From NCBI GenBank assembly GCA_025617745.1, contig CM046863.1, forward strand, positions 12,344,273 to 12,408,272: a stretch of DNA of 64,000 bases, given 5' to 3'. The number at the start of each line of letters is the position of its first letter. Position 1 is the stretch's first letter. The position numbers were made by a program, and so were the translations under genes. The notes beneath the pieces were generated by a model. That model worked only from the letters and a program-made list of their open reading frames with translations, did not search any database and had not been told where the DNA came from. Positions 11,544-58,256 of the stretch are shown here, in pieces. The stretch is from Heliocidaris erythrogramma. Taxonomy: Eukaryota; Echinodermata; Echinoidea; Camarodonta; Echinometridae.

Positions 11544-12335
11544 ATGAGTGAGGAAGATGGAGACAATACTCAAACTCTGTCTCAGGACAAATCGGAGGAG
11601 ATTGCCACCAACCAAGCCATCACTGGACTGGCAATTAAGATACCACCATTTTGGGCAAGCGACCCAGCCATTTGGTTCGCCCAGGTTGAGGCACAGTTTC
11701 GGACGAAATCCATAACGACAGAGGGAACGAAGTTCACCCACGTCATCGCTTCGTTACAGCCCGAGATTGCCACGGAAGTTCGAGATCTCATAATCACTCC
11801 TCCTACGCAACTCCCGTACACCACACTTAAAGAAGCGCTCATCAAAAGAACTTCTGCCTCCGAGCAAAAACGACTCAACAAACTGCTTGTTGGAGAGGAG
11901 CTTGGTGACCGTACACCGTCCCGATTTCTTCGAAGGATGCAACAACTGCTTGGTGACAAGAAGTTGGAGAGCAGCATTCTGAAACAACTCTTCTTACAAA
12001 GACTGCCCATGAATGTGCAACTTATCCTTTCTTCAACTAGTGATACTGCTACCATTGAGGAATTAGCGGCACTTGCGGATAAGATTATCGAGGTTGCGAC
12101 CCCACTTTCAATCTCCGGGATGCAAGCCAAGTCACCAGTCCCGCCTCCTTCTAAGGCCGAACCATCACCACCGCCTAGCCCGAACTTAGCCGGCGATATG
12201 CAGAGACTCACCGCCCAAGTCGCCCAACTCACTGCACAGTTGCAGTCGCTTACAACCGCTCTACGTCGAGAGAGCTCAAGGTCCCGATCGAGAGATCGTA
12301 CCCATGGAAAGCGACACATCAAGCCCCAGCCCTAA
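11544..12335 (+). CDS. gag: gag region of CsRn1-type element (fossil)
   Basis: A 263-codon reading frame with CsRn1-like capsid sequence: IPPFWASDPAIWFAQVEAQF, then EVRDLIITPP and RTSASEQKRLNKLLVGEELG. It ends in a proline-rich and Arg/Ser-rich tail. In the family, Gag forms the capsid around the RNA intermediate. It starts about 20 bases after the primer site, as expected for the first ORF. Confidence 0.85.
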   Translation: MSEEDGDNTQTLSQDKSEEIATNQAITGLAIKIPPFWASDPAIWFAQVEAQFRTKSITTEGTKFTHVIASLQPEIATEVRDLIITPPTQLPYTTLKEALIKRTSASEQKRLNKLLVGEELGDRTPSRFLRRMQQLLGDKKLESSILKQLFLQRLPMNVQLILSSTSDTATIEELAALADKIIEVATPLSISGMQAKSPVPPPSKAEPSPPPSPNLAGDMQRLTAQVAQLTAQLQSLTTALRRESSRSRSRDRTHGKRHIKPQP

Positions 12336-12350
12336 GCGTACCACTGGTGT

Positions 12351-15037
12351 ATGCTGGTATCACCATCGATTCGGAGATCGTGCCCACAGGTGTACACAGC
12401 CGTGTACTTACACACCATCCCAGGATTCTCGGCAAACCACGGGAAACCACGAAGCCGGCAACTAACGGCGACGGGTATAGCCGGCACACACTCACCGAGT
12501 CGCCTATTTTATATCATGGACAAACATACTGGGCAACGATTTTTTGTGGATACAGGTGCCGAAGTTAGCGTCATTCCTCCAACATATGCAGATAAATGTC
12601 GTGGAACTAACACAGATGTATTTTTACAGGCCGTTAACCGTTCTCGTATTCATACCTTTGGAGAACGTTCTGTTACCATGGACATTGGACTTAGACGAAC
12701 TTTTAGATGGGTATTCATCATTGCCGATCTACACACACCGATCATTGGAGCAGACTTTTTACGTCATTTTGGATTACTAGTGGACATTAAACACAACAAG
12801 CTACATGACACTATCACCAATCTGTCTGTTAATACACTCTCTGTTCCATCTGAGACACCCTGTATCGGCCTGATGTTCGCACGACCTTCAACGAACAGAT
12901 ACGATCGTGTCGTGAACCAGTTTTCGGACATTACACGCCCTATCTACACTGATCAATCTGTCAAACACACAGTGACTCATCATATCACCACTCGTGGTCC
13001 GCCCGTGCATTCCCAACCCCGCCGACTATCGCAAGACAAATTGAAGATAGCCAAGGCCGAATTCGACCACATGCTTGATCTCGGGATTATACGGCAATCG
13101 GACAGTAATTGTTCATCTCCATTACACATGGTACCAAAGAAAACACCTGGGGACTGGAGACCATGTGGTGATTATCGAGCACTAAACGATCGAACAGTAC
13201 CTGATCGATACCCAATTCCTCATCTTCAAGATTTCTCGTCATCGCTTTATGGAAAGAAAGTTTTCTCGAAGGTGGATCTCATTCGTGCATATCATCAGAT
13301 TCCAGTAGAACCAGTTGACATTCCAAAGACCGCAATCACCACTCCGTTTGGATTATTCGAGTTTGTTCGCATGCCATTCGGACCACGCAATGCTGCACAG
13401 ACTTTTCAGAGATTGATGGACGATGTTGTAAAAGGACTTCCTTTTGTGTTCGTATACATTGATGACGTGCTCATCGCCAGTGATAACGAGGACGAACATG
13501 AAATACACCTCCGTCTACTCTTTGAGAAATTTCGCAAGTACGGAATCGTCATCAATCCTACCAAGTGTGTTTTTGGAGCCACTTCACTCACTTTCCTGGG
13601 TCACATCGTGGATGAGCATGGAATTCAACCCCTGGACGAGAAAGTGAAGTACATTCGTGAACTCCCCACTCCGATTTCGTTGCGCAAATTGAGGGAATTC
13701 CTCGGCCTCGTGAACTTTTATAGGCGCTTCATTCCTCACTGCCCTGATGTTCTCCAGCCACTAACAGACATGCTGAAAGACAAAAATAAGAAGAATCAGA
13801 CTCTTTCTCTGGATCAAACGGAAATTTCTGCTTTCAATCGTGCTAAGGAAGAACTGGCTCATGCAACTATTTTGGCACACCAACAACCAGACGCTCCTTT
13901 GTGTCTATTTGTCGACGCTTCTGATGTCGGTGTCGGCGGAGTAGTCCAGCAACTCGTTAATGACTCATGGCAACCACTCGCATTCTTCTCTAAGCGACTT
14001 CAGCCTGCTGAAATGAAATACAATACTTTTGGAAGAGAACTGTTAGCTGCCTACCTCGGTGTTAAACATTTTCGTCATCTTCTCGAAGGTCGACAGTTTA
14101 CCATTTTCACCGATCACAAGCCCTTAACGTACGCCTTGAAGTCTAAACAAGACCGCCATTCACCGCGAGAGATACGACATTTAGATTTCGTTTCACAATT
14201 TACGTCTGACATCCGTCATGTGAGCGGAAAGGACAATATTCCTGCAGACACTCTCTCTCGTGTATACATAGACAGTCTGGAACACAACGCTTCCATCGAT
14301 TTCGACGCCATTGCTCGTTCTCAAGAGGACGATGACGAGATCGCAAACTTCACCGATGACAATTCACTCGACATACAACGAATACCAATTCCATTTTCAG
14401 ACGGAACAATTTTGTGTGATATGTCAACGGGTACTCCACGTCCATACGTTCCTGTGTCATTTCGCAAATCGATTTTCAATGCACTTCACAATCTTTCACA
14501 CCCTGGAATTCGAGCTACGCAAAAACTGTGCATTGAGCGTTTTGTTTGGAAAGGCATAAATCGAGATGTGCGATCATGGACACGAACATGTTTGCAATGC
14601 CAACGTTGTAAAGTTCATCGTCACAACAAAGCACCTCTTGGAACTTTTTCTACACCCGATGCGAGGTTTGATCATGTGCATATTGATATCGTCGGTCCAC
14701 TCCCCTCATCAGAAGGATATACTTATCTTCTCACATGCATAGATCGTTTTACACGGTGGCCTGAAGCAATCCCCATGAGCGATATATCAGCCGATACAGT
14801 GGCACGTACTTTTATCAATCATTGGATCGCTCGATTCGGAACCCCGTCAACGATCACGACCGACAGAGGACGTCAGTTTGAATCTCATCTTTTTCGTTCT
14901 CTCACCGATTTACTCGGAACGACACGGATTCGGACGACATCGTATCATCCCACATCGAACGGACTCGTAGAACGTCTGCATAGACAATTGAAAGCCGCAA
15001 TCAAGACGCACAAGGATTCACGTTGGACTGAAGTCTT
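12351..15037 (+). CDS. pol: pol region of CsRn1-type element (fossil)
   Basis: The order is aspartic protease ([13 protein letters not shown]), reverse transcriptase ([21 protein letters not shown]), RNase H ([23 protein letters not shown]), then integrase with an HHCC zinc-binding part (CLQCQRCK) and catalytic core ([21 protein letters not shown]). The order RT, RNase H, integrase is that of Ty3/Gypsy. The integrase is cut by the minus-strand LINE inserted at about 15037; the remaining part lies beyond 33630. Confidence 0.9.
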
Positions 15038-15340
15038 TTTTCAATTCAATTCTCATTTATTTCATTTTCAATTAAAAAGTACATTCAAAACAAATACAAA
15101 ATATGTCATAATCGAAATTAGAAAATGAAATGGGGAACTACATAAATAAAGCCCTTGGGCCTTGTACAAGCATAGTTCCCTACAAATATTGCGAAATTTA
15201 TACAGACAATAGAAATAAAAAACAAAAACTAAAAATATAAATACTAAAAATATACATATAAATAAAATAAATATAAATACAAATATAAAATATAACACAA
15301 ATATGGCACAAATATAGATAACAGAGAAAAATAAAAATAA

Positions 15341-16765
15341 CTATACATATTTAAGGGTAAGAAAATGCTTCAACTTTTTTTTGAAAGAAGTGATTGTATT
15401 GCAATTAGAAATATATTTGGGGATTGAGTTCCAAATTACAGGGAAATTATGTCGTACTGATTTCATGGCACTATTTGTTTTAACTGGCCATAAGTGAAAA
15501 GAATCCTTAAAACGGGTATTATGATTATGTATCTGGTAATTAAAAGTGAACATTTGAGAAATGTTTGAGGGTAATTTATTTTGAAAGTAAAAGAAACCAA
15601 GGAGAGCAAGGGAGTAATAGTACAAATCAAAAATATTAAGAGATTTCAATTTTTTGAACAATGGGGCAGAAGGGGAACGATAAGGACATCCCAGGCATAT
15701 GCGAAGGGCCTTTTTCTGTAATTTAAATAATTTATCTAATTTAGTTCGACTACAATTGCCCCAAACAACAACACAGTAATTTAGGTATGAGAGCATAAAT
15801 GAATTATATAATAGTATTAAAGCAGAAGACGGAAGCGAGTCTTTTAATCTATACAAAATACCAATACATTTAGATACCTTTTGAGTGACCTTATTGACAT
15901 GAGTATCCAAATGCATATTATAATCAATGTATACCCCAAGGAAATTAACACTATTAACCTTATTTAATATATCATTGTTGATTTTAAGAAGTAAATTATC
16001 AAATGAATCAGTTAAATTAGACTGCCTATGAAAGAACGTAATGTAATTTGTTTTACTAGGATTTATCAACAATCTATTTAATTTGAACCATTTTGTTACT
16101 TTCTCTATTTCAGTATTAATATTGTTTTGTAAATTATGCCTGTTAGGTTGGGTGTAAATTAAAGTGGTATCATCAGCGTACATTATGTAATCAAATTTGT
16201 CAGATGAATGTGTAAGATCATTTATATAAATCAAAAACAATAATGGACCTAGGATTGAACCTTGTGGTACCCCATGTGTAAGAGAAGAGAAATTGGAATA
16301 GTTATTATTATAAACTACATATTGAGATCTGTTACAAAGATAACTTTCGAACCAACTTAGTGGTAAGCCCCTAATCCCATAGTATTCCAATTTTGACAAG
16401 AGTATTCTATGATCAACTATATCAAAAGCTTTGGAGAGGTCCATGAAAATGCCAATACAAAATTTATTAGTATGAATTGCCGACAAAACTTTATCTTGTA
16501 AATCTATCAAAGCATGTGTAGTTGAATGATTTTTCCTAAACCCATATTGTGAGTCAGTAAGAATATTATTATTTAAACAAAATGAATATAATCGATTATA
16601 AATGCATTTTTCTAACAATTTTGATATGGATGGCAGAATAGAAATGGGCCTATAATTATCGAATTTATGAGGGTCATTCTTTTTAAATACAGGGGTTATC
16701 TTAGCAATTTTTAGTTTATCCGGGACTATGCCTGTAGAAAGAGAGAGGTTGAATATAAAAATCAA
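15341..16765 (-). CDS. LINE-A ORF2, reverse transcriptase part
   Basis: 474 codons with RT motifs in order: LKIAKITPVFKKNDPHKFDN, YRPISILPSISKLLEK, FMDLSKAFDIVDH, HGVPQGSILGPLLFLIYIND, and the catalytic YADD in IMYADDTTLIYT. The C-terminal region has SYLNYCVVVWGNC and a terminal FPVIWNSIPKYI. It overlaps the endonuclease part (16716-18077) in another frame: one frameshift in a T-run near 16790 separates the two, so this ORF2 copy is not functional as it stands. Confidence 0.9.
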   Translation of the reverse strand: MIFIFNLSLSTGIVPDKLKIAKITPVFKKNDPHKFDNYRPISILPSISKLLEKCIYNRLYSFCLNNNILTDSQYGFRKNHSTTHALIDLQDKVLSAIHTNKFCIGIFMDLSKAFDIVDHRILLSKLEYYGIRGLPLSWFESYLCNRSQYVVYNNNYSNFSSLTHGVPQGSILGPLLFLIYINDLTHSSDKFDYIMYADDTTLIYTQPNRHNLQNNINTEIEKVTKWFKLNRLLINPSKTNYITFFHRQSNLTDSFDNLLLKINNDILNKVNSVNFLGVYIDYNMHLDTHVNKVTQKVSKCIGILYRLKDSLPSSALILLYNSFMLSYLNYCVVVWGNCSRTKLDKLFKLQKKALRICLGCPYRSPSAPLFKKLKSLNIFDLYYYSLALLGFFYFQNKLPSNISQMFTFNYQIHNHNTRFKDSFHLWPVKTNSAMKSVRHNFPVIWNSIPKYISNCNTITSFKKKLKHFLTLKYV

Positions 16766-18055
16766 TGGATGTACAATATAAATTATGATTTTTTTTCATT
16801 AAGTTAGTACTAAGATTATCAAATCCAGCAGAGTTACTGTTGTGTAATGAATTACTAATGTTAATAACTTCATGTTCTGTTATGGGATTAAAGTAAATAG
16901 AATTGTTGATAAAACCAGTCAGATAGTCTTTAAAAGAAGTATTATTAGGAGAACTGGTCACTGAATTAGTTATCTGTCTACAACAGTTTATGAAATGTTG
17001 ATTAAATTCAGTTACTATATGTTGTGGATCGCAAACATTTCCAGTCTCATTAATAAAATATTCAGGTAAAGATGTTTTAGGTTTATTTAGTATTGAATTG
17101 ATAACTGACCACGTCTGTTTTGTATTACATTTAAAGGACTTTATTCTGTTAGAAAAATATGATTTTTTTGCATGCTTTAACAGATTATTTAATTTATTTC
17201 TATATTTTTGGTATTTTCTTTCATTATCCAAGGTATTGTTTTGGAGAAATTGTTTATAACAACGATTCTTTTTCTTTATGCATCTCAATAAATACTTTGT
17301 TATCCATGGTTTTTTAATGCCTCTTTTAGTGTGTTTACTTCTTAACAAAGGAAAATGTTTGTCAAACAACTGAGTAAAACGATTAATAAAAAAGGAATAA
17401 GCATCATTAGCATGTGTAATATTATAAAGATTGGTCCACTCTTCATGATAAAGATCATATTGAAAATTGCGTATATTGTTATCTGAGTATTTACGAAAAA
17501 AACGAATTGAACTTTGTTGATAAGTATTATTATTAGAACTTTTATAGACTAGAAAAATGGGTAAATGATCACTAACATCAGAACAGAGACTACCTGAGTC
17601 GAATTCTGTATCAAGTACATTAGTGAATACATTATCGATAAGGGTAGCAGTGCTTGATGTAATACGAGTTGGGGTTTGTATAATCGGGAATATACCAAGT
17701 GCAGAATTAATACTAAGAAACTCATTAACAGTATCGTCATCTTTCAACAAATCAATATTAAAATCTCCAGTGATATAAATATTCCTATGTCCATTACTTA
17801 ATGTATTAACAGCATTGTTGTAAAATTCAAAAAATATTTCATGATTTGATCCTGGTTTTCTATATATGACACCAAGAGTAGACCTCTTGTGGTTTACATC
17901 TAAGAAATCAATAAACAAATATTCACATGTTAAATTGGACTCTTGATTATAAACGATATCTGTTCTTACAGTATAAAGTATATCTTTTTTCACAAATAGC
18001 GCAACACCACCCCCTCGTCCATATATCCTGTTAACATTCAAAAAATTATAATCAT
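16716..18055 (-). CDS. LINE-A ORF2, endonuclease C-terminal part and linker
   Basis: This part reads YGRGGGVALFVKKDI, NIYITGDFNIDLL, TPTRITSSTATLIDNVFTN and CSDVSDHLPIFLVY, which are the later motifs of an apurinic-type LINE endonuclease, including the catalytic SDH. A basic linker (KRGIKKPWITKYLLRCIKKK) follows. Its N-terminal part lies across the BEL insertion at 26668-26934. Confidence 0.9.
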
Positions 18056-19123
18056 TGTGACGAATAAAATTCAGCATCTAAAATTCAGAGTAATGCTGTT
18101 CATGGACATGACGTTAAGTTCTAGGACGAACGAAACAATAGCCTGTTATGACACGGGTTTGACGTATTTCCAGTAAGCAGACTGGTCCTGACAACTGATG
18201 TTGCCTAACCGTTCGATCTGCAGATTTAATAATAAACAAAGAAATCAAAAGTATTTCATGACAACAGTAAATGAAATAGCATGCAAATAATGATTGCTAT
18301 TCTTCATCATATTCATAAAACTCTCATTATTTTACCTGCTTTCTATCTTGAATGTTTTACTATATCCTTTAATCTTTGTCTATATCAGTATCACTATAAT
18401 CTATAAATTGTATTTCCAACAAATATCTCAAATTGTCCTCTGGTATCCTTAAACATGTACTTTATATCAAAATGCAACCTGCCTCAGAGCTTCAATAAAC
18501 AATAAATCTCTTTACTGTACTTACACATTGTGTCAATGTGTCTTATTCATTGTCATGATTCACTATTTACTTCATAGCAATTTATCCTGTAAATATTCAA
18601 CCTTATTAGTAAAATAAGTTCTTCAAATATGACTTCATTCTTATTTAATATGCCTTCTTAGCATTCAACTTATAAAGAATCATTTAACTCATGAGAAATC
18701 GCTGTATTTCAGCTTATAGACTACAGCGTCATACACGTTATCCTTTGTCTGTGCATACAAATTCACTACAGCACGCAATTCTAATGCATGCACCTTTATC
18801 ACAACACACTGAACACGCCCATCAGGGCCATTTTTCCTGCCTCAAATTACACATAATTTCATCATTGTTTCGGCACTACATTAGCTCTAAACATTGCATT
18901 AATCATTTAACTATGGAAATAACATCAAAATGAACACTTACAACATTGGCTTGTCCAAAAGGAATCTAAATAACAGCATAAACCCCGAAATGACGTTTGA
19001 ATTTGCCTGCGCAAATATGGCTTCCAAATAAATTCATATCGCCCTCACTTGACCAAATAGTGACAGGCACAAAAAATCTCGCTTATGACGTAAGCACTAA
19101 ACTTCGGAAGACTGTATCTTTCA
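18056..19123 (-). repeat. 3' LTR of BEL/Pao element
   Basis: 1068 bp, nearly identical to 25599-26667. In element orientation it begins TGAAAGATACAG and ends ATTCGTCACA. Confidence 0.92.
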
Positions 19124-20415: not shown

Positions 20416-22413
20416 TCATGACTTAATGCTTCCAACTTCCTCCAAAAGGCACACTTTCTGCACTGGTCTCATAAGCGTGCCTGTACTGTGTTTCACCTTC
20501 ACGGATCTCACGAGCAGGTCCTTCCCTGGAAAGGTTTCTGTTATCCTTCCCATGAGCCACTTGTTCCTGGGTAGATCTTCGACGATCAACACGATGTCTC
20601 CTACTTTCAAGTTCCTTTTCTCTTTCAGCCACTTCTGTCTGTACTGCAAAGTAGGTAGATATTCACGTATCCACCTGTGCCAAAATACATCAGCGAGATA
20701 TTGAACTTGACGCCAACGTCGACGGCTGTACAGATCGTGATTCTCAAACATATCAGGTGGGAGTATGTTGCTCTGCCTCATCAGAAGTAGATGATTGGGA
20801 GTCAATGGCTCTGGATCCCTGGTGTCGTCAGAAATTACTGTTAGTGGACGCCCGTTGATAATCGACTCCACTAAGCACAGTAGTGTCGATAGTCCTTCGT
20901 CAGTCAGAACTTGCTGCTTCATAACTGCATTCAGAACTTTCTTTGTGGTTCTGATTAGCCTTTCCCATGCCCCGCCCATGTGCGGTGCCAAAGGCGGATT
21001 GAATTTCCAGTCAATTCCCTTCTGAAGTAGATTGTCATGGATTTTGTTCTGATTCCAATTTTGCAATCCTTCCTTTAGCTCTCTCTCAGCACCTACAAAG
21101 TTGGTGCCATTATCACATCTGATAACATCTGGTTTTCCTCGTCTTGAAATAAATCTCTGCAAGGCATTCAGGAAAGAGTCTGTCTCCATAGAATGTAAAA
21201 TCTCTATGTGCACTGCTCTAATTACAAGACAAGTGAAGATACAGCCGTATCTTTTCACCTGGCTTCTCCCTTGCTTCACGAAGTAGGGTCCAAAGCAGTC
21301 AATTCCAACATGACAGAATGGTGGTTTTTCTGGTGTCACCCTGTCTGCAGGTAAGTCCGCCATCTTCTGGTCTACTGGATTAGCACGCAGTCGTTTGCAA
21401 ATAAAGCAATCTCGTAAGACTCGACGAACTGCAGTTCTTCCCTTCACAATCCAGTACCTTTCTCGAAGTAGAGATAGTACATATTCCTTTCCAGAGTGAC
21501 CTGAAATGAAGTGATGTTGTCTCACCAAAAGGTCTACGACATGATGCATAGGTGGAAGAATCGTCGGATGTTTAATTTCTTCCTTCAAAGGTGCATTCTT
21601 GAGTCTTCCTCCTACACACATCAGACCTTTATCTGTGAATTTAATGTCGAGCTTTGAGAGTGGGCTAGATTTTGGAACTCGAGTCGATGACTTTCCGTCT
21701 TCAAGTCTTGCATTTTCTTGAAACACCTTGTACTCGTCAGGATAGCTCTGATGTTGAACGTATCTGACGATAGCCTCTTCTGCAGTATTCATGTCTGTGG
21801 TGTTTAAAGGCCCCTTAACATCATAGGTGTTGCCTTGAAGTTTGCTTCGCAAGTACTGTTTCCATCTCAAAATCCATGCCACTGCTTTCTGAAGTCTGAA
21901 CCAGGAGGAGAAATGACTCAAGAGTTTATCTACAGCATTATGTTGCTCTGTGTCAATGGTGAATGCTTGAGTATCCCTTGTAGTCTTAACTTCAGGATCA
22001 TCGTCTTTAATGGGGCAGCTTGAAGTTGGGTCTTGAGGCCAAAATCTTTCATCTAAGCAGATGAATTCTGGTCCAGTTAACCATCTTGTATTCGACTTCA
22101 ATTTCTCTGCTCCCATGCTTCTTGTAGTGTCGTCTGCTGGGTTAGAAGTAGAATTCACATAATGCCACTGTGCTGGTTCTGAGTTTTCTCTGATGGTTGC
22201 AATTCTATTGGCGACGAATGTTTTGAACCTCTTGTCTTCATTGCGGACATATTGCAACACAATCGTACTATCAGTCCAAAATACTGATCGGCTGATGGGA
22301 AACTCCAATTCTCTCCTTAGCATAGCATCTAACTTCACAGAAAGTGTTGCCGCTGTTAATTCCAGACGTGGAATTGTCATCTTCTTCAATGGAGCAATTT
22401 TTATCCCTGTCAA
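20416..22413 (-). CDS. pol: BEL/Pao pol, RNase H and integrase part (fossil)
   Basis: Motifs typical of BEL/Pao: APLKKMTIPRLELTAATLSV and VFWTDSTIVLQYVRN (RNase H), then ISGHSGKEYVLSLLRERYWI and CFICKRLRANP (integrase zinc-binding part), HVGIDCFGPYFVKQG, VIRCDNGTNFVGAERELKEG and PHMGGAWERLIRTTK (integrase core). A C-terminal NLKVGDIVLIVEDLPRNKW closes it. Confidence 0.9.
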   Translation of the reverse strand: MTGIKIAPLKKMTIPRLELTAATLSVKLDAMLRRELEFPISRSVFWTDSTIVLQYVRNEDKRFKTFVANRIATIRENSEPAQWHYVNSTSNPADDTTRSMGAEKLKSNTRWLTGPEFICLDERFWPQDPTSSCPIKDDDPEVKTTRDTQAFTIDTEQHNAVDKLLSHFSSWFRLQKAVAWILRWKQYLRSKLQGNTYDVKGPLNTTDMNTAEEAIVRYVQHQSYPDEYKVFQENARLEDGKSSTRVPKSSPLSKLDIKFTDKGLMCVGGRLKNAPLKEEIKHPTILPPMHHVVDLLVRQHHFISGHSGKEYVLSLLRERYWIVKGRTAVRRVLRDCFICKRLRANPVDQKMADLPADRVTPEKPPFCHVGIDCFGPYFVKQGRSQVKRYGCIFTCLVIRAVHIEILHSMETDSFLNALQRFISRRGKPDVIRCDNGTNFVGAERELKEGLQNWNQNKIHDNLLQKGIDWKFNPPLAPHMGGAWERLIRTTKKVLNAVMKQQVLTDEGLSTLLCLVESIINGRPLTVISDDTRDPEPLTPNHLLLMRQSNILPPDMFENHDLYSRRRWRQVQYLADVFWHRWIREYLPTLQYRQKWLKEKRNLKVGDIVLIVEDLPRNKWLMGRITETFPGKDLLVRSVKVKHSTGTLMRPVQKVCLLEEVGSIKS

Positions 22414-22708
22414 AATCCTTCATGAAACCAAAGTCAAGGCACCAATGCCTTGAAAGCTCATACCTTAGCAAGTCGATCAGATTCTCTCCGAATATGCATA
22501 TGACAAATACAGGTACAAAGACATGCAATATCGTGAAAATATATGTTTCACTTGTGATCAAATAATCACAATTCATGTATAGAAAATATTGTAACCGAGT
22601 CCACTGAGTCCATGAGTTTGCAAATAGTGAGTTGCAAATTGAAAAATTGCAAATTGAGAGTTTTTGAGTTCATTTCTAGTCTTCACACTAAATAATTCAT
22701 TTCTAAAT

Positions 22709-23803
22709 TCAATTTGCAAATTTATCATTTAGAATAGCCTTTCTTGCTTCAGGTTTGCTGTCATCTTCATGTGCGTCTAATGCTGTTTGACGAAGTGCAT
22801 AGCTGCATACACTCGGGCTCCAGGTGCCTCCAAATAAATGCACGCACATCCTGTAGATCTTAGGAGTTGCCTGTAGATTTCCATCTGGCCACCATAAGAA
22901 TCTTAGACTGTCTCGCTCTGCTGGGGGAACTCTAACTTGATGGAACATAGCTTCGATGTCACCCATTAGAGCAACTGGTGCCTGACGAAATCTAAGCAAA
23001 ACTCCAATCAACTTGTTGGTGAGATCAGGACCCTGCATAACGGCATCATTCAGTGAAATACCCTTGTGTTTGGCAGCACAATCAAAGACAATGCGCATCT
23101 TTCCTTTCGTTGGATGTAATACTGAATGGTGTGGGATATACCAAGTAGATCCCTCAGGCTCCGGTGCATCATCTGTTACTTCTTCGGCATAACCCTTTTC
23201 TAGGAGATCTTTAATGCCTTCCTTATATTTGTCATGCAAGTCTTTGTCCTTCTCTAACCTCCTTCCAAGGCTCTGAAGTCGTCGTTCAGCCATGTACTTG
23301 TTGTTCTCAAGATCGGGAGGGCATTCCTTGAATGGAATGGCCAATTGATAATGACCTTGATCCTTGGTGATGGTCTCTTCCCAGATGTGAACGGCCTTCT
23401 TGTCATTTATGGACATTCCTCTATCCTCCATTATGTCATTCCCTTCCATTTTCCAAAACTTGTGAACTTGTTCATCTAGGCATACATCACTGTTGATGAA
23501 GTTAGCTGTTGCCATGTGTTGACTTGATTCTTTGCGCCCGACAGGTCCATTAAGTGTCCAACCAAGCTTCGTCCTTATTGCAAAAGGACCATCCTGTCCG
23601 CGTCTAACTTCTATAGGCGCTAGGGCTTCAGGTACATCTTGGCCTATCAACAACTCAACCTTCTGGAGTCTAGCTGAATCCAAAATATCCAAGTCCTTCA
23701 AATGCGGCCATCTTGTGATATCTTCCTTCAAGATGTTGTCACAATTAATGTTGATAGTCTGTTTAGTGTACACTCTAGGGAGACTAATCATTTCATTTAA
23801 CAT
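22709..23803 (-). CDS. pol: BEL/Pao pol, reverse transcriptase part (fossil)
   Basis: It reads RTKLGWTLNGPVG, STWYIPHHSVLHPTKGKMRI then VFDCAAKHKGISLNDAVMQG, and PVALMGDIEAMFHQVRVPP, which are BEL/Pao RT hallmarks. The part is incomplete. Confidence 0.85.
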   Translation of the reverse strand: MLNEMISLPRVYTKQTININCDNILKEDITRWPHLKDLDILDSARLQKVELLIGQDVPEALAPIEVRRGQDGPFAIRTKLGWTLNGPVGRKESSQHMATANFINSDVCLDEQVHKFWKMEGNDIMEDRGMSINDKKAVHIWEETITKDQGHYQLAIPFKECPPDLENNKYMAERRLQSLGRRLEKDKDLHDKYKEGIKDLLEKGYAEEVTDDAPEPEGSTWYIPHHSVLHPTKGKMRIVFDCAAKHKGISLNDAVMQGPDLTNKLIGVLLRFRQAPVALMGDIEAMFHQVRVPPAERDSLRFLWWPDGNLQATPKIYRMCVHLFGGTWSPSVCSYALRQTALDAHEDDSKPEARKAILNDKFAN

Positions 23804-23846
23804 CCGGCCTTCTACTCTCAGGCTGACTTCAGTGCATTGTAGCTGA

Positions 23847-25547
23847 CTATTGGCTATTGGCTTGATCTAATGTTGACAGTGATAGTGTCTGTTTCCTTCC
23901 ATTTACACCGAGTCTTCTGATTAAATCTTCTGTGCAGAAGGAATTGGTCGATCCTGGATCCAAAAGAGCAAAGGTATCAACTGCACGGTTGTCTTCAGAT
24001 GCATATACCCGGACTGGAACAATTGGTAGAGCGATCTTGAATTTTCCGGCCCCCGTGACATGACTTTGAGCATCAAGATGAACTTCAGGCTGGGATTGTG
24101 ATGAAGGCTGAGCACTTCCTGTCTGTTGAGGACTTCCTTTTTGTTGCTGTGGTGTACGTACGATGTGCAAGAACTTGGTATGTTTCATCTTGCAGCCATC
24201 AACTGAACACATCCTGTTGAGATTACAATCTTTGGTCATATGTCCTTTGTTAAGACAATTAAAGCAGAGACCTGCTTTCTTAGCAAAGTCCAGTCTCTCC
24301 ATGGGTTTCATTTGCTTGAATTTCTGGCATCCGAAAAGGGTGTGACCTTCATGACACAAATAACATCTGCGAAAGTCAGTCCTTGAAGTGACCTTGTCTA
24401 TATTAGCTGAGTGACTACTTGATCTCTGTGGCCATGGCTTCCTCCCTTGAGGTTGACGATGTTGAGGTTGACGATCTTTCTTTGTCTTCCAAGCAGCAAG
24501 CCCATAAACTGGATCATTCTCCTCATCTGCTGCATCATCCACAAATGACACCATATCAGACATGCTTGGTTGTCGGTTTTCATTCCTCCAGATGTCCTTG
24601 GTCTTCCTGATCCAGCGATATCGGAGATGCGTTGGAAGTCTCTCTACAATCTGGACTAGGAAAGTCTGAAAACTCATTTCAGCTTCGTGACCCATAGCGA
24701 CTAAGGTTTGATAACACACCTGCAACTCATCGGCCATAGATAGCAAGGCGGGACCATTGTGAGGTGGTATCATGTTGCCATGGGTTACCTTACGAATCCA
24801 AGCATCTGCTATCTTGTGTCGATTTCCAAAGCGCTGCTCCAGCAACAGTTTAGCTCTCACATAACCTTCATCGGGTGGCATAGCTGAGCAGGCCTGAATG
24901 ACCTTCCTGGCATCACTGCGACAATAATGCAGCAGTCTTGTTAACTTGGCTGCATTGCTGATGGAAGTATCATCTACGTTCACTTGAAAGGCATGCCAAA
25001 ACTCCCAAAACTGAAGGGGGTCACCATCAAATGTCATTAATTCTGCTTTAGGCAGTTGCATCATGTCCACCATAACCTGAAGAGATGCAGGTAAATCGTT
25101 ATTAGATGGTGACTGGTCTGGTTGTCGAGTATCTTGATCGGACGACTGAGTAAATCGCACCGATCCATCATGCTGTTGAATAGATGACTTCTGTTTTTCT
25201 ACTACAGGAGTCTCCACTGGATAAGGAATTGTATCGTCACATTTGATCTTCCGTTTAAACTCTGCATAAACCTTCTCCTCAGCTTCAACACTCGCTATCT
25301 GAGACTTCAATTTTAGTTGTGACATTTGCTGTGACAATTTAAACTGCTGAAACTCTAGTTCCTGTTGTTCCCTTAAGATGTTAGCTTCTGCTAATAAAGC
25401 GGCCTTCTTAGCGGCTGTATTCCTTCTAGCACGACTGCTACCAGTACTACTGGTCACGCTGACTCCACATTGACTCGCAGAGTCCCCAGGGTTGACATCC
25501 GAGTTTGCAGTCATCTTGACTTCCGATTTCACATCAGTAACGCTCAT
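23847..25547 (-). CDS. gag: BEL/Pao gag and protease region (fossil)
   Basis: It starts MSVTDVKSEVKM. A coiled-coil-like charged stretch follows (residues about 45-100). Next comes the capsid region with LPKAELMTFDGDPLQFWEFW, then two zinc knuckles (CYLCHEGHTLFGC, CFNCLNKGHMTKDC), and a retropepsin-like TFALLDPGSTNSFC. This layout is diagnostic of BEL/Pao Gag-Pol. Confidence 0.9.
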   Translation of the reverse strand: MSVTDVKSEVKMTANSDVNPGDSASQCGVSVTSSTGSSRARRNTAAKKAALLAEANILREQQELEFQQFKLSQQMSQLKLKSQIASVEAEEKVYAEFKRKIKCDDTIPYPVETPVVEKQKSSIQQHDGSVRFTQSSDQDTRQPDQSPSNNDLPASLQVMVDMMQLPKAELMTFDGDPLQFWEFWHAFQVNVDDTSISNAAKLTRLLHYCRSDARKVIQACSAMPPDEGYVRAKLLLEQRFGNRHKIADAWIRKVTHGNMIPPHNGPALLSMADELQVCYQTLVAMGHEAEMSFQTFLVQIVERLPTHLRYRWIRKTKDIWRNENRQPSMSDMVSFVDDAADEENDPVYGLAAWKTKKDRQPQHRQPQGRKPWPQRSSSHSANIDKVTSRTDFRRCYLCHEGHTLFGCQKFKQMKPMERLDFAKKAGLCFNCLNKGHMTKDCNLNRMCSVDGCKMKHTKFLHIVRTPQQQKGSPQQTGSAQPSSQSQPEVHLDAQSHVTGAGKFKIALPIVPVRVYASEDNRAVDTFALLDPGSTNSFCTEDLIRRLGVNGRKQTLSLSTLDQANSQ

Positions 25548-27921: not shown

Positions 27922-28363
27922 ACAGTTAGACTAGGTGTAATGTCAGCGCTGAGTGTACAGTGGATAGTATTGTTGCTTTAAATCTCATTTTCCTAACACT
28001 TTACTGGAATATTTTGTGATTTTACTCACTTTTGTTGCTGTTTAACACCTGAAGCCTCATTAGGATAGGGTTTCATGGATTATTTGTGCAGGATTGCATA
28101 GATTTTTACTGATTGCATTCTCACCTGGATATGGACCTTTTTGGGAACTTTGAGCAAGCCAGTCCCATACCTGCACCCTTGCGTCATGTTGTGTGTCTTC
28201 AGATATCTTGACATTTCTCCATCTTGCCTCATGGACTTTTGAAGATGGTCTAGCTCCACAATTGACCCTGATGTTTTTATGCAAGGTGGGCAATACAGGT
28301 CTTGATTTACTTTAGTGCTTCTTATAATGTTCTTGATGTAATTTTTGAGTCTGTAAAAGATGC

Positions 28364-31300
28364 TTGCATGCTACCAGCTGCCTGATATCAATTGTCAGTA
28401 TGTCAAGTCCCTTAGACTATTTCTTTTGGCTCATGTTGGCATTTGCAATCATCAGCATCCATCACAGCCGATCGATGCGTAAGCCTTTCAGAGCAGAGCA
28501 GGATTTTATCGCTCAAGACCTGTCACAACTGCAGCACCCTCGAAATCCTTCAACATCTACACACAGCTCATGGATTGAAGAAAGTCTCTACTGGTCAGCC
28601 TGTACATCTAGCCGAAGAACCAGAGGATGTACCGTTTCTTCACCACAGTATGGAAAGAAGCACGCCCTGCTGTATTTGACTTTTCTTCTACTCTCCGTCG
28701 CTTCTGATATCGAGTCAAACCCAGGACCAAGAACTCCGAAATATCCATGTCAGATATGTTCTCGAGCAGTGACCTGGAAGCAACGTGGTGTAGCTTGCGA
28801 TGATTGCGATGGGTGGTACCATGTTGAGTGCATGGGTATGTCGACGCAGGTGTATGACGCCCTTCATGAACCCAATGTCTCGTGGCAATGTGTGAAATGC
28901 GGTATGCCACAGTTCTCTAGCAGTCTTTTTGATCAGACTCAACTCGAAACATCAAACACCTTTGAAACATTGGACTCACTTAGTGACAACATCACACCTA
29001 GCAACACCAGCCTTGACACCAGCAACAGCTCTTCATTTGGCTCACCGCAGCACACATCCTCCCCTCTAAGTCTCAGGAAAAGGAGGGCAGAGAAGGAACG
29101 ACAAAAGTTGCGGAGTTTGAAGGTACTCAATGTTAACTTCCAGAGTGTAAGAAACAAGAAAGAAGAGTTGGCGGTGCTCATTGACTCAACAGATCCTAGC
29201 ATCATCATAGGGACAGAAACCTGGCTAAGCAGTTCAATTTCCACCTCTGAGATTTTCCCACCAAGCTTCAGCGTTGTGCGAAAAGATCGAGAAGATGGCT
29301 ATGGAGGAGTACTACTCGCTGTACGTTGTGACCTGGTGTATGACATCATTCAGGTGCAAACCTTAGGAGAGCATGTCTTCATCAGGCTCCAATTTGGTAA
29401 AGGCTTGAGCCTCATCGTTGGAGCCCTTTATCGCCCTCCCAACACTGATGCACAGTACATGGACAATATCTGCTCAACGGTCGAGGAGATATCCGCCCAG
29501 AATAGGAAGTCCGTCTTGTGGATAGGTGGTGACCTCAACCTACCAGACATCAACTGGGAAGACTTGAGCGTGAATGGACATAACAACCCAGCTCCTGTTA
29601 ACAACCGGTTCCTAGATATGGTCCAGAACTGCAACCTACAGCAGATGGTTTCCTTCCCTACACGAGGAGACAACTTACTTGATCTCTTCTTAACCAACAG
29701 GCCAACACTGATCAACAAATGCACCCTTCTCCCAGGCCTCGGGGATCATGACATCGTAGGGGTTGAGTCAGATGTTACTGCAAAGCGTTGCAAGCCAGTG
29801 AAGAGGAAAGTGTATCTGTGGAAGAAGGCTAGCCTTAAGGAGATGAAACAAGATTGTCGCCTGTTTCAACAACAGTTCCTGAACACATACAGTGAACAGA
29901 GCTCAGTGCATGAGATGTGGAACTGTTTCAAGACCAGTCTACTGAACATCATGGACACCCATGTTCCAGCAAAAACTACATCTTGTCGCTTCAGCCAACC
30001 GTGGGTCACAAGGTCTGTGAAACGGCTCTCGAGAAGGAAAAAGCGGGCCTTCAATCGCGCTCGAGCATCTGGCAGACCTCAGGATTTCAGCAAATACCAT
30101 CAGCTTAAGAGGTCATCACAGGCAACCTGCAAGCAGGCGTACAACGAGTACATCAGCAATATCATCAGCCCTGACTCCACTACAAACCCAAAACGATTCT
30201 GGAGCTTTATCAACAGTAAGAGGAATGATAACACTGGAGTATCTCCACTGAAAGACATCAATGGGAAGACACACTCAGACAGCAAAGAGAAGGCCGATAT
30301 CCTGAATCAGCAGTTTACATCAGTATTCAACAGGGATGAAGACATGTCAACATTGAAGGATAAGCGACCCAGTCCATTTCCTGGTATGGATGACATCGTG
30401 ATCTCCCCAGCTGGGGTACACAAGCTACTGTCTGCTCTTGAGATCCACAAGGCTACCGGACCAGACAGACTTCCTGCACAACTTCTCAAGGCGCTGTCAT
30501 TGGAGATAACACCAGTGTTGACTATGCTCTTCCAGGCCTCACTACATCAGGGCGTGGTTCCCATGGACTGGAAGAATGCAGATGTTGTCCCTATCTTCAA
30601 GAAGGGTGAGAGATGCAAGGCGGTCAACTACAGGCCTGTGTCGCTGACATCAATCGTCTGCAAGACTCTGGAGCATATTGTCTGCACAAGCATCCATGAG
30701 CATCTTGATGATCACCACATTCTGTCAGATGCTCAGCATGGTTTCCGCAAGAGAAGATCCTGCACATCTCAACTCCTTCTCACCATCCAAGATCTCACTA
30801 GCAGTGTCGACTCAAAGGACCAGATTGATGTTATTCTGTTAGACCTATCAAAGGCTTTTGATAAGGTCCCGCATGGAAAACTCTTGCATAAAATCCACTA
30901 CTATGGAGTCCGTGGTAAAGCCCATAACTGGATTAAGGATTTCCTCACTGGTCGCTCTCAAAGGGTTCTACTCAATGGTTGCACTTCTCACACCTCTCCT
31001 GTCCTCTCGGGCGTTCCGCAAGGCAGCGTCGTCGGACCTCTTCTCTTCCTTCTCTTCATCAACGATCTTCCTGACTGCATATCACCCAAGTCCACGGCAA
31101 GATTGTTCGCAGACGACTGCATCCTGTACAGGACGGTGAAGAGTGAGGAAGATGCCCAGAGCCTTCAAAAAGACCTAGACAACCTCCAGGAATGGGAAAA
31201 AGACTGGCTGATGCACTTCCACCCGCAGAAATGCCACATCATGCATGTCTCTAACAAAAGGAAAATGTCTCAGACATCCTTTCCTTACTTCATCCACGGA

Positions 31301-31918
31301 GAGCAGCTACAAGAAACAGATTCTGTAAAATACTTGGGTGTCAACATACAGAGTAACCTGAAATGGAATCACCATGTACATGTGACAACCAAGAAAGCCA
31401 ACTCAGTTCGAGGCTTCCTGCAGAGAAACGTGAGAGCCTGCCCTCCGAAGACAAAGGCATTACTCTACAAGACCTTGGTACGCCCTGTGATGGAGTATTC
31501 TGCAACGGTATGGGACCCATCTACCCAAGAGAACATTAGAAAGGTGGAAATGGTTCAACGTCGATATGCCCGCTTTGTCCTGGGTGACTATCGGCGCACA
31601 AGCAGCGTAGCCACCATGCTGAAACATCTTCACTGGATAAGTCTACAAGAGAGGAGGGCGCAACAGAAAGTGTACATGGTCTACAGCATTCTTCATGGTT
31701 TGGTTGATCTCCCTGTCACCAACTTCATCCCAGTTGCTGGCCCACAGACCCGCGGGAACCCACATAAGTTCAGGGTTCCCTTTGCTAGAACTCACCTGTA
31801 CCAAACAACGTTCTACCCAGACGCTATCAGACTGTGGAATTCCCTGCCACCTGCTGTTGTCAACTGCACCTCCTTGGAGCTCTTCAAGCAGAAGGTGCAA
31901 CATGTGAAGCTCCGTTGA
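28364..31918 (+). CDS. LINE-B polyprotein: 2A, PHD finger, endonuclease, RT
   Basis: 1184 uninterrupted codons. Residues 17-32 and 101-111 are hydrophobic; the second runs straight into a 2A motif DIESNPGP at 115-122 (28706-28729), where ribosomes are known to skip the Gly-Pro bond. A C4HC3 PHD finger follows: C129, C132, C145, C148, H153, C156, C176, C179. The endonuclease spans about 252-470, with NFQS at 258, TETW at 284-287, GGDLN at 388-392 and GDHD at 460-463. The RT spans about 680-960, with LDLSKAFDKV, SGVPQGSVVGP and catalytic FADD at 915-918. The protein copies LINE RNA into nicked DNA. The 2A probably frees a short N-terminal leader, and the hydrophobic tract suggests it may also act as a signal; that part is inferred. 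The first Met of the open frame was chosen. Confidence 0.93.
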   Translation: MHATSCLISIVSMSSPLDYFFWLMLAFAIISIHHSRSMRKPFRAEQDFIAQDLSQLQHPRNPSTSTHSSWIEESLYWSACTSSRRTRGCTVSSPQYGKKHALLYLTFLLLSVASDIESNPGPRTPKYPCQICSRAVTWKQRGVACDDCDGWYHVECMGMSTQVYDALHEPNVSWQCVKCGMPQFSSSLFDQTQLETSNTFETLDSLSDNITPSNTSLDTSNSSSFGSPQHTSSPLSLRKRRAEKERQKLRSLKVLNVNFQSVRNKKEELAVLIDSTDPSIIIGTETWLSSSISTSEIFPPSFSVVRKDREDGYGGVLLAVRCDLVYDIIQVQTLGEHVFIRLQFGKGLSLIVGALYRPPNTDAQYMDNICSTVEEISAQNRKSVLWIGGDLNLPDINWEDLSVNGHNNPAPVNNRFLDMVQNCNLQQMVSFPTRGDNLLDLFLTNRPTLINKCTLLPGLGDHDIVGVESDVTAKRCKPVKRKVYLWKKASLKEMKQDCRLFQQQFLNTYSEQSSVHEMWNCFKTSLLNIMDTHVPAKTTSCRFSQPWVTRSVKRLSRRKKRAFNRARASGRPQDFSKYHQLKRSSQATCKQAYNEYISNIISPDSTTNPKRFWSFINSKRNDNTGVSPLKDINGKTHSDSKEKADILNQQFTSVFNRDEDMSTLKDKRPSPFPGMDDIVISPAGVHKLLSALEIHKATGPDRLPAQLLKALSLEITPVLTMLFQASLHQGVVPMDWKNADVVPIFKKGERCKAVNYRPVSLTSIVCKTLEHIVCTSIHEHLDDHHILSDAQHGFRKRRSCTSQLLLTIQDLTSSVDSKDQIDVILLDLSKAFDKVPHGKLLHKIHYYGVRGKAHNWIKDFLTGRSQRVLLNGCTSHTSPVLSGVPQGSVVGPLLFLLFINDLPDCISPKSTARLFADDCILYRTVKSEEDAQSLQKDLDNLQEWEKDWLMHFHPQKCHIMHVSNKRKMSQTSFPYFIHGEQLQETDSVKYLGVNIQSNLKWNHHVHVTTKKANSVRGFLQRNVRACPPKTKALLYKTLVRPVMEYSATVWDPSTQENIRKVEMVQRRYARFVLGDYRRTSSVATMLKHLHWISLQERRAQQKVYMVYSILHGLVDLPVTNFIPVAGPQTRGNPHKFRVPFARTHLYQTTFYPDAIRLWNSLPPAVVNCTSLELFKQKVQHVKLR

Positions 31919-32042
31919 GCTTCAGGACTGTTTTTTAGCTGCACATAGTTTGATTGTAGAGCAATTTTTACTTGCACTGTACACTCGGCACTCGACAAGC
32001 ACAAGGTACGATAATACGCCAGCGGCGGTCTGTACCAGACTG

Positions 32043-32065
32043 GAAGAAGAAGAAGAAGAAGAAGT
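32043..32065 (+). repeat. (GAA)n 3' tail of LINE-B
   Basis: GAA repeated about six times right after the LINE-B 3' untranslated end, a microsatellite-type tail as used by several CR1/L2-type LINEs. Confidence 0.8.
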
Positions 32066-32468: not shown

Positions 32469-33182
32469 TCAAAGAAAGTCAAGATCTTCCTTACATATTA
32501 TGATCTTCTTCTGGTTCTTCGTTGAGCTTGAGCGTGGAATAACAAATATGCGTCCGTCAGAAGACCAAGCCGACTCTACCTTCACATGACGCCTAGCTTC
32601 ACCCAGCAATTTACTATTGAAATCAGTCAAGTCTTCCTGAATTCCCATGCCGGTATGTTTGAGGGATCTTCTGTTGGTGATGAGTAGCTGCCTGTATTTA
32701 TAGCTGGTTAATTTAACTATTATTGGTCTTGGCGGTACAGGCTTAGGTCCAGCTGATTTTGCAGGTTCCCTTTGCTTTCCAACTCGATGACTTCGGTCGA
32801 TGTGCTTTGGTTCGAGATCAATGGAGAGTTTTTCCTTCGCGATTCGACAAATGAGAGCATCAGTATTCTCCTTTGTAGATTCCTTCACTCCATATACTCT
32901 CACACAATTTCTCCGGGAGTATTGCTCCTGTTTATTTTGTTCATAACTAATTTTCTTTATCTTTTCCAACGCAGATTCGAGCTCCTTTGTGGTACGAATG
33001 ATGTCATTTCGTGCTCCCTCCAAATTACTCCGAAGATCAAGAATGATACCATCTTGTATATCAAGTTGAGATTGAATTTGGAGCAAATCTACAGCCTTTG
33101 ATATTAAGGCATTGAGAGTATCCAATAGTTCATCATCCTCCAGTAGGTCCTTTAACAATTGCTTCTTTTGCCTGGTACCCAT
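32469..33182 (-). CDS. LINE-A ORF1 protein (coiled coil plus RRM-like)
   Basis: 237 codons starting MGTRQKKQLLKDLLEDDELL. Residues about 25-85 are heptad-rich and likely a coiled coil (LDLRSNLEGARNDII, KELESALEKIKKI). After that come SRRNCVRVYGVKES, DRSHRVGK and PRPIIVKLTSYKYRQLL, the RRM-like signature of L1-type ORF1 nucleic-acid-binding proteins that also occur in CR1-group LINEs. It would bind LINE RNA as a multimer. The frame is intact and upstream of ORF2 in element orientation. Confidence 0.85.
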   Translation of the reverse strand: MGTRQKKQLLKDLLEDDELLDTLNALISKAVDLLQIQSQLDIQDGIILDLRSNLEGARNDIIRTTKELESALEKIKKISYEQNKQEQYSRRNCVRVYGVKESTKENTDALICRIAKEKLSIDLEPKHIDRSHRVGKQREPAKSAGPKPVPPRPIIVKLTSYKYRQLLITNRRSLKHTGMGIQEDLTDFNSKLLGEARRHVKVESAWSSDGRIFVIPRSSSTKNQKKIIICKEDLDFL

Positions 33183-57240: not shown

Positions 57241-58256
57241 TGAAACTTAACCATTATGGGGTTAGAGGGAAAACACTCAACTGGTTAAACGCCTGGCTAA
57301 CGAATCGAACTCAAAAAGTAGTTATAGATGGGGAACTGTCCCGTTCTATTCCAGTCACCTCTGGAGTCCCGCAAGGAACCGTTCTCGGGCCCCTAATGTT
57401 CCTTCTATTCATAAATGATATCGGAGAGCTTATTGAGAACCAAACAAGCATACAACTTTTTGCGGATGACTGCCTGCTGTTTCGCCCAATCCAAGGTGAT
57501 GAAGACCAAATTCAATTACAGACTGATCTCAACAAGCTCAAAACATGGGCAGACATGTGGCAGATGAATTTTAACCCTACTAAATGTGAATGCTTACACA
57601 TAACCAGGAGGAAAACGCCCAAGGTCTTCACTTACAATCTCATGGGAACAGATTTGAAAACGGTTAATCAATGCCGTTACCTTGGTATCAACATTACAAA
57701 TAATCTAACATGGAAAAGTCATATAGATAAAATATCAAATGATGCCAACCGGATACTCGGAGTTGTCAAACGCAACCTCGCTAGATGTGATCAATCTGTG
57801 AAGAGAATAGCCTATCTTGCCCTCGTCAGACCAAAGCTAGAATATGCATCTACTGTATGGGACCCCCATCAGTCAACCTCCATTCACAAATTGGAAATGG
57901 TTCAGCGCAGAGCTGCCAGATTTATCAAGAGAGACTACTATCGCACTTCCAGTGTCACAGCCATGCTTGAAGAATTGCAACTGACCCCACTTGAGCTGAG
58001 AAGACGTCACTGCCGACTAACCACACTCTATAAAACACTACATAACGAAAGTGCAGTAGACATCCCTCCCTACGTCAAAAAAGCCACCCGTCCAAGAGGA
58101 GATGACGACGACAGATTCACGCCCTTGCAGTGTAGAACCCAAGCATATTTACGTAGTTTATGGCCACAAACCATTAAAAACTGGAATGCCCTGCCAATGC
58201 TAGTCAAAAGTATGTCATCCACCAAGAAATTCCAATCTTCCATTGAATGTATTTAG
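57240..58256 (+). CDS. LINE-C RT second half
   Basis: 338 codons continuing after the frameshift: LNHYGVRGKTLNWLNAWLTN, SGVPQGTVLGPLMFLLFIND, catalytic FADD in QLFADDCLLFRP, then RYLGINITNNLTWKSHIDKI and the terminal LWPQTIKNWNALPMLVKS. Similar in layout to LINE-B but clearly a different family. Confidence 0.88.
   Translation: MKLNHYGVRGKTLNWLNAWLTNRTQKVVIDGELSRSIPVTSGVPQGTVLGPLMFLLFINDIGELIENQTSIQLFADDCLLFRPIQGDEDQIQLQTDLNKLKTWADMWQMNFNPTKCECLHITRRKTPKVFTYNLMGTDLKTVNQCRYLGINITNNLTWKSHIDKISNDANRILGVVKRNLARCDQSVKRIAYLALVRPKLEYASTVWDPHQSTSIHKLEMVQRRAARFIKRDYYRTSSVTAMLEELQLTPLELRRRHCRLTTLYKTLHNESAVDIPPYVKKATRPRGDDDDRFTPLQCRTQAYLRSLWPQTIKNWNALPMLVKSMSSTKKFQSSIECI

What the first reader, a model, noticed from the sequence alone, without database searches (positions are those of the whole stretch)
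27922..32065. Uninterrupted LINE ORF with N-terminal 2A, PHD finger, endonuclease and RT
The 1184-codon frame is intact and its ends look complete, with a GAA tail and a short target duplication. DIESNPGP fits the 2A consensus DxExNPGP and directly follows a hydrophobic run, so translation could release a short leader and a separate PHD-EN-RT enzyme. A PHD finger could target insertion to marked chromatin. 2A-like motifs are known in sea-urchin LINEs and NLR proteins; the combination with a PHD finger in a likely active copy deserves a look.
Basis: partly seen in the sequence, partly recalled or inferred. Interest (0 to 1): 0.75.

Follow-up and report, generated by a model that had tools for sequence, protein, structure and literature searches.

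The report
Recently active LINE with 2A leader
A jumping gene with several near-identical intact copies in its genome probably makes its copying enzyme by a ribosome-skipping trick that cuts off a short leader resembling a secretion signal, an arrangement shared by many related elements.

Summary
The LINE is real and intact. Its genome holds nine more copies with the whole ORF intact, 99.3-99.9% identical to it, so the family was active recently. From the first in-frame ATG (28400) the ORF has 1172 codons: a 109-residue leader ending DIESNPG, then P, a Pygopus-like PHD finger, endonuclease and RT. Two details fail: the family's 5' end is about 27933, and a target duplication is not shown.

The 2A is not chance. 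Of 73 proteins (window included) with PHD and at least 15 residues before it, 72 carry NPGP 2-12 residues ahead of the PHD. Its codons diverge mostly synonymously between families.

Further finding: leaders resemble secretory signals. An N-terminal hydrophobic segment occurs in 91 of 111 non-redundant 2A leaders, against 7 of 30 without 2A (7 of 20 without truncated models), in PHD and PHD-less clades. Likely mechanism: StopGo frees PHD-EN-RT from an ER-directed leader. StopGo activity, ER targeting and histone binding are inferred.

2A LINEs and single-ORF PHD LINEs are known. My paper searches found no signal-like LINE leader, but the key 2013 paper was not readable.

The parts
27922..27932 (+). 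11 extra bases at the 5' junction, absent from twelve copies with a complete 5' end
   Evidence: 5' ends of L017, L018, L022, L024-L027, L030-L032, L034, L037
27933..28399 (+). 5' untranslated region with 12 upstream ATGs
   Evidence: shared 5' end at 27932-27935; upstream ATGs listed; matches of 451 nt or more to this UTR in 15 of 30 genome loci, the window's own included
28400..31918 (+). single ORF, 1172 codons plus TGA
   Evidence: intact in 10 of the 17 fetched copies that span it end to end
28400..28726 (+). leader, 109 aa, ending in NPG
28415..28468 (+). N-terminal hydrophobic helix (residues 6-23), signal- or anchor-like
28655..28702 (+). hydrophobic helix directly before the octapeptide (residues 86-101)
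28706..28729 (+). 2A/StopGo octapeptide DIESNPG|P
   Evidence: conservation
28748..28900 (+). PHD finger, C117 to C167 (Pygopus-like)
29117..29809 (+). APE-type endonuclease domain (approximate limits)
   Evidence: Pfam PF14529; model matches L1 endonuclease chains, TM 0.72-0.75 normalised by the target
30599..31348 (+). reverse transcriptase domain, FADD at the active site
   Evidence: Pfam RVT_1; L1 ORF2p is the best structural match
31919..32042 (+). 3' untranslated region
   Evidence: sequence, shared by copies
32043..32064 (+). (GAA)n tail, length varies between copies

Best explanation
This is a recently active, autonomous, single-ORF LINE, most likely of the Jockey superfamily (L2/CR1 lineages). 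Its mRNA is translated from ATG 28400. The first 109 residues form a leader with an N-terminal hydrophobic signal- or anchor-like segment, a poorly constrained middle and a hydrophobic helix that sits in the ribosome exit tunnel when NPG reaches the peptidyl-transferase centre. StopGo releases the leader there. The ribosome resumes at Pro and makes a separate, leader-free PHD-EN-RT protein. Freed from the ER-directed leader, this enzyme can reach the nucleus, where its PHD finger probably reads an H3 tail and EN-RT performs target-primed reverse transcription. Shown here: anatomy, recent activity, selection on the octapeptide and enzyme, family-wide leader pattern. Inferred: StopGo activity, ER targeting, histone reading.
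For: Ten intact ORFs; within-family omega 0.33 in residues 111-1172, 1.18 in leader residues 1-102 (only 10 changes), no change in the octapeptide. Octapeptide information 3.44 bits per column against 2.89 for the RT core and 0.57 for the leader. Against the 59% relative in the same genome (L046): of 8 octapeptide codons 2 identical, 5 synonymous, 1 I/V; against L001, from a mussel symbiont assembly: 0 identical, 6 synonymous, 2 replacements. NPGP next to the PHD in 72 of 73 proteins and 30 of 33 of a second set. N-terminal hydrophobic segment in 48 of 61 PHD-clade leaders (shuffles mean 10.2, max 19) and 46 of 54 PHD-less leaders (shuffles mean 16.5, max 27). Net charge higher on the N side than the C side of that segment in 51, lower in 24, tied in 16 of 91 leaders (p 0.002); 67, 10 and 14 if the free N-terminus is counted as +1. 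Of 107 non-redundant leaders kept, 87 have 80-130 residues up to NPG, long enough for the signal to leave the ribosome before NPG is read: 65-70 residues lie in the ribosome-translocon complex (PMC2978324, discussion read).
Against: No translation or localisation data. In the window's own leader the charges are -1 (N side) and +2 (C side), the reverse of the usual signal; within the PHD clade alone the charge bias without the N-terminus is only 25 against 16. 20 of 111 leaders with 2A lack the hydrophobic segment, and 7 of 20 leaders without 2A have it. 25 of the 72 PHD-clade proteins with NPGP have leaders shorter than 80 residues: truncated models or another layout. Start codons of database proteins are predictions. 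N-terminal signals can inhibit the 2A reaction in some constructs (PMC2978324).
Confidence: 0.6

Rival explanations
1. The 2A mainly lowers the output of enzyme: some ribosomes release the leader and do not resume, replacing the dampening that an upstream ORF1 gives in two-ORF LINEs. The leader's targeting is incidental.
For: Proposed for single-ORF 2A LINEs by Luke et al. 2014 (content recalled; the paper was not held; its title is in the reference list of PMC4981915). The leader is poorly conserved in sequence and relaxed within the family.
Against: Does not explain why 91 of 111 leaders keep an N-terminal hydrophobic segment far from the 2A.
Confidence: 0.21
2. Dual targeting as in sea-urchin NLR signal-2A sequences: incomplete StopGo is the point, and a fused ER/secreted form has its own role beside the cytosolic enzyme.
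For: Shown with reporters for SpNLR2A6 (PMC4981915, abstract, passages and discussion read). Short leaders in which hydrophobic segment and 2A coincide occur here too, e.g. P0038 and P0057.
Against: A secreted RT has no evident use. In most of the leaders kept, the two hydrophobic segments are separated by a long middle, unlike the NLR case.
Confidence: 0.12
3. The leader is itself a working small membrane peptide with two hydrophobic segments, co-made with the enzyme.
For: Bipartite hydrophobic pattern: first 40 residues 48 of 61, last 25 residues 27 of 61, middle 1 of 59. Positive charge just before the second segment (means +3.0 and +2.5 per 16 residues).
Against: Little sequence conservation of the leader and omega about 1.2 within the family (few sites).
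Confidence: 0.1
4. The octapeptide is not active and a single fused protein is made.
For: No assay. Upstream context matters for activity (PMC12846837, one section read).
Against: N, P, G and P are kept in 72, 73, 73 and 73 of 73. Mostly synonymous divergence at its codons. Canonical octapeptide with an L-rich upstream context, one of the motif types of PMC12846837.
Confidence: 0.06

Closest known systems
2A-bearing APE-type LINEs (Odon et al. 2013; clades Rex1, Crack, L2, L2A, CR1, Ingi as recalled)
   Same: Single-ORF LINE with a 2A octapeptide near the N-terminus of the EN-RT protein.
   Different: Paper not held: known from recall and from citations in PMC4981915 and PMC12846837 (passages). 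I cannot tell whether it notes the PHD or a signal-like leader. PMC4981915 describes 2As of viruses and LINEs as internal sites.
Single-ORF LINEs with N-terminal PHD, ORF1 type IIIA: L2 subgroup 4 and CR1 subgroup 6 (Metcalfe and Casane 2014, PMC4120745, passages read)
   Same: One ORF with a PHD finger before EN-RT. A PHD of 51 aa with Pygopus as top structural hit fits their L2 subgroup 4 row (2vpb_A) better than the CR1 subgroup 6 row (48 aa, 1wep_A); several two-ORF subgroups also have 2vpb_A.
   Different: That paper does not hold the term 2A-like (0 occurrences) and calls the region 5' of the PHD highly repetitive.
SpNLR 2A signal sequences of sea urchin (Roulston et al. 2016, PMC4981915, abstract, passages and discussion read)
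   Same: N-terminal sequence that combines a secretory signal with StopGo.
   Different: There one short element does both jobs before an innate immune receptor. Here the signal-like segment and the 2A lie about 80 residues apart, before a retrotransposon enzyme.
L1Tc 2A elements of trypanosomes (Heras et al. 2006, seen only as a citation)
   Same: 2A in frame with LINE proteins.
   Different: Distant LINE clade; no PHD reported as far as I recall.
Pygopus PHD finger (PDB 2vpd, 2vpb, 2dx8)
   Same: Best solved match, E 5.7e-7, with Tyr two before the first Cys and Trp two before the His at the same places.
   Different: Cellular Wnt co-activator. The use of these residues as a methyl-lysine cage is recalled, not tested here.

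Membership tests
APE-type LINE (Jockey superfamily) | APE-like endonuclease plus RT with FADD in one ORF, 3' simple-repeat tail, 5' truncated copies | tested here: met
   Superfamily placement itself rests on resemblance, not on a tree
L2 lineage, subgroup 4 (type IIIA) | Placement in the RT/APE tree of reference elements | not testable with these tools
   No reference set held. Only indirect agreement: PHD 51 aa, best solved match Pygopus
Single-ORF PHD LINE (type IIIA) | Only a PHD, no RRM/CCHC/esterase, before EN in a single ORF | tested here: met
   Pfam scan; in-frame stop at 28346-28348 upstream of the ORF and only short upstream reading frames
2A/StopGo sequence | D(V/I)ExNPGP with a suitable upstream context | tested here: met
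   DIESNPGP after a leucine-rich helix
2A/StopGo sequence | Separation of products in translation | not testable with these tools
   Needs a two-reporter assay
Signal-2A leader (SpNLR-like) | N-terminal hydrophobic segment with positive N side | tested here: inconclusive
   Hydrophobic segment met (12-aa mean 2.54). Charge rule: 51 against 24 leaders (16 ties) follow it, the window's leader does not (-1 against +2)
Recently active element | Several near-identical intact copies at different loci | tested here: met
   10 intact of 17 copies spanning the ORF, among 30 loci fetched of 41 matches
Histone-reading PHD finger | Zinc ligands and aromatic positions shared with Pygopus | tested here: met
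   Seven of eight Cys/His ligands invariant, the eighth at least 90%, in 67 aligned proteins; aromatic two before the first Cys in 70 of 75, Trp in 74 of 75
Histone-reading PHD finger | Binding of a histone tail | not testable with these tools
   Needs a binding assay

The most novel reading that the evidence does not exclude
Single-ORF LINEs in two distantly related clades (with and without PHD) share a translation strategy not described for retrotransposons: a secretory-type leader brings the translating ribosome, with its own mRNA, to the ER membrane, and StopGo then cuts the leader off so that the enzyme is born at the membrane but stays cytosolic and binds that mRNA in cis. The leader would stand in for the missing ORF1.
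Probability: 0.27. Interest if true: 0.75.

Novelty: new member of a known kind. Interest (0 to 1): 0.52.

Why it matters
2A translation is called rare in cellular genes (PMC12846837), yet here it is the rule among the listed relatives of one LINE, tied to a PHD finger in one clade and to a signal-like leader in two. This makes an open question directly testable: how LINEs without ORF1 control where and how much enzyme is made. The family described is young with several intact ORFs, so it is a good subject for translation, localisation and retrotransposition assays.

Tried and rejected
Rejected: AGAAGTA as a proven target duplication; 27922 as the family's 5' end; the leader as a conserved protein domain (0.57 bits per column; no Pfam match up to E 1 within it). 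Not settled: CR1 or L2 lineage, since no reference elements are held. The host species was not sought: the genome is given without a name. No Rfam family in the window at gathering scores. A scan of viral contigs confirmed no relative. Odon 2013, Luke 2014 and Rao 2025 could not be read, so the novelty of the leader rests on paper searches in a partial library.

Weak points of my controls. The 30 non-redundant leaders without 2A include 10 gene models of the PHD clade that start inside or after the PHD; without them the contrast is 91 of 111 against 7 of 20, p 4.5e-5. Four leaders with a degenerate motif (P0067, P0081, P0291, P0341) were set aside; three of them have the hydrophobic segment. 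One search used only proteins that begin with Met, have a recognised endonuclease motif at least 90 residues in and, if with 2A, at least 65 residues before the octapeptide; 26 proteins with 2A fell to a like length filter. Of the 63 PHD-less proteins counted with NPGP, three have the odd octapeptide VFKLNPGP (P0266, P0277, P0315). Only the best 120 of 256, 129 and 322 hits were listed and used. Two PHD proteins with fewer than 15 upstream residues were dropped in each. Wider counts of other 2A-PHD families in the same genome failed because the tool did not complete.
Full report
What is there. The window holds a 4.1-kb LINE on the + strand. The frame is open from 28349 to 31918, with the first in-frame ATG at 28400 (A at -3) and twelve upstream ATGs. 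Pfam finds, in order, a PHD finger, an APE-type endonuclease and an RT. An AlphaFold model from 67 aligned proteins (mean pLDDT 85) matches human L1 ORF2p best (E 1.2e-39). It shows two helices in an otherwise low-confidence leader: residues 6-23 and 86-101, the latter ending just before DIESNPGP.

Copies in the genome. The search of the window's own assembly (1.06 Gb, 26 contigs) gave 41 matches, the window's copy included, as a lower bound; 30 loci were fetched. Seventeen of the 30 span the ORF end to end and ten are intact, the window's included; the nine others are 99.3-99.9% identical to it over the ORF. Three of the ten are cut short in the 5' UTR (L020, L021, L023). Among the ten, 64 ORF sites vary (27 synonymous and 37 replacement changes; ratio per site 0.39). 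The ratio is 0.33 in residues 111-1172 and 1.18 in residues 1-102 (2 synonymous, 8 replacement), and the octapeptide does not vary. So the family moved recently and the enzyme has been under selection. One relative at 59% identity sits in the same genome with an open frame (L046).

Ends. Twelve copies start at window 27932-27935 (query start 11-14). The window copy has 11 further bases (27922-27932). L019 has about nine, which resemble the window's in part, so these are probably junction extras rather than element. Joined flanks align contiguously to neighbouring repeat units, which supports an insertion there. Target duplications are not a clear family feature: of 27 copies scanned, L033 has one of 29 nt and L042 a 9-nt match within a microsatellite. 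Matches of 7 nt or more occur in 5 of 27 against 5% expected, so short ones may exist.

The 2A is selected. In the first homologue search (120 of 256 hits listed), 75 proteins including the window show the PHD pattern and 73 have at least 15 residues before it. Of these 72 carry NPGP 2-12 residues before the first PHD cysteine, 45 of them exactly 6 before; the exception, P0081, has KPGP. Mean pairwise identity in this set is 43%. Per column the octapeptide holds 3.44 bits, the RT core 2.89, PHD 2.40, EN 2.31 and the leader up to residue 82 0.57. A second search from a distant member (P0116; 104 new proteins among 120 listed of 129) gave 30 of 33. The exceptions are P0150 (NVHPHPGP; a His at that Asn position was highly active in PMC12846837), P0153 and P0162. 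Ten of the 69 PHD-less proteins of that set have NPGP in the first 320 residues. At codon level, window against L046: of eight octapeptide codons two are identical, five changed synonymously, one is I/V. Against L001, from a Bathymodiolus symbiont assembly and probably mussel DNA: none identical, six synonymous, two replacements.

The leader. In 61 non-redundant PHD-clade leaders of 70-150 residues, a 12-residue window of mean Kyte-Doolittle 2.0 or more occurs in the first 40 residues in 48 (shuffles: mean 10.2, max 19), in the last 25 in 27 (mean 5.1, max 13) and in the middle in 1 of 59. A third search from P0200, a PHD-less element at 25% identity to P0116, shows the same in another clade: of 120 listed (of 322), 85 have at least 90 residues before the endonuclease motif; 63 of these have NPGP and none the PHD pattern; 46 of 54 non-redundant leaders have the N-terminal segment (shuffles mean 16.5, max 27). 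Over the three searches 91 of 111 non-redundant leaders with 2A have it (46 of 59 with PHD, 45 of 52 without), against 7 of 30 without 2A; without ten truncated PHD-clade models it is 7 of 20, Fisher p 4.5e-5. Net charge is higher on the N side of the segment than on the C side in 51, lower in 24 and tied in 16 of 91 leaders (p 0.002). Counting the free N-terminus as +1 makes this 67, 10 and 14. Positive charge precedes the pre-2A helix. These are features of secretory signals or signal anchors, though the charge evidence is modest. The window's own leader has the hydrophobic segment but the reverse charge pattern. 25 of the 72 PHD-clade proteins with NPGP have leaders under 80 residues.

The PHD. 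The closest solved structures are Pygopus PHD fingers (E 5.7e-7). The tyrosine two before the first cysteine and the tryptophan two before the histidine match Pygopus residues; the first is aromatic in 70 of 75 proteins and the second Trp in 74 of 75. That they form a methyl-lysine cage in Pygopus is recalled.

How it probably works. See the best explanation. Shown: anatomy, recent activity, selection on octapeptide and enzyme, leader pattern. Inferred: StopGo, ER targeting, histone reading. A signal in front of 2A can hinder the 2A reaction in some constructs, attributed to the translocon (PMC2978324, abstract and discussion read); that the pre-2A context is kept for this reason is a guess.

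What is known. 2A in single-ORF LINEs (Odon 2013, not readable here) and PHD in single-ORF LINEs (PMC4120745, passages) are each in print, and signal-2A sequences are known in sea-urchin NLRs (PMC4981915, passages and discussion). The near-constant pairing of 2A with PHD and the signal-like leader in two LINE clades were not found in searches of a partial library; that is weak evidence of novelty. I therefore file the element as a new member of a known kind and put the leader hypothesis in the novel case.

Noticed in passing
window 55948-58256 (+): A second LINE, about 42% identical in EN-RT, split by a frame change; no PHD or 2A seen in the 1.6 kb upstream, so probably 5' truncated.
   Followed up: partly
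window 1863-3184 (-): Fragments of another relative (52% identity over 173 residues).
   Followed up: no
window 15341-18077 (-): A LINE with endonuclease and RT in two overlapping ORFs, about 30% identical in RT.
   Followed up: no
window 11544-15128 (+): LTR-type retrotransposon with long open frames: DUF7041 protein, then protease-RT-RNaseH-integrase.
   Followed up: no
window 20416-25547 (-): BEL/Pao-like element: DUF1759, Peptidase_A17, integrase, DUF5641 in separate open frames.
   Followed up: no
window 32469-33182 (-): 237-aa open frame beside the LINE, resembling an L1-type ORF1 by eye; only weak Pfam matches below cut-off.
   Followed up: partly
L046 (59% relative in the same genome): Second 2A-PHD family with its own signal-like leader and an open frame of 1170 codons.
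   Followed up: yes
L001, L002 and other symbiont or MAG contigs: LINEs in bacterial and archaeal assemblies, e.g. of Bathymodiolus gill symbionts: probable animal contamination in reference genomes.
   Followed up: no
P0171, P0174, P0175, P0211, P0217: Distant LINE proteins share an N-terminal motif like YRxRIGxF, three with and two without NPGP.
   Followed up: no
L033: One copy has a 29-nt target duplication although most copies scanned show none.
   Followed up: no
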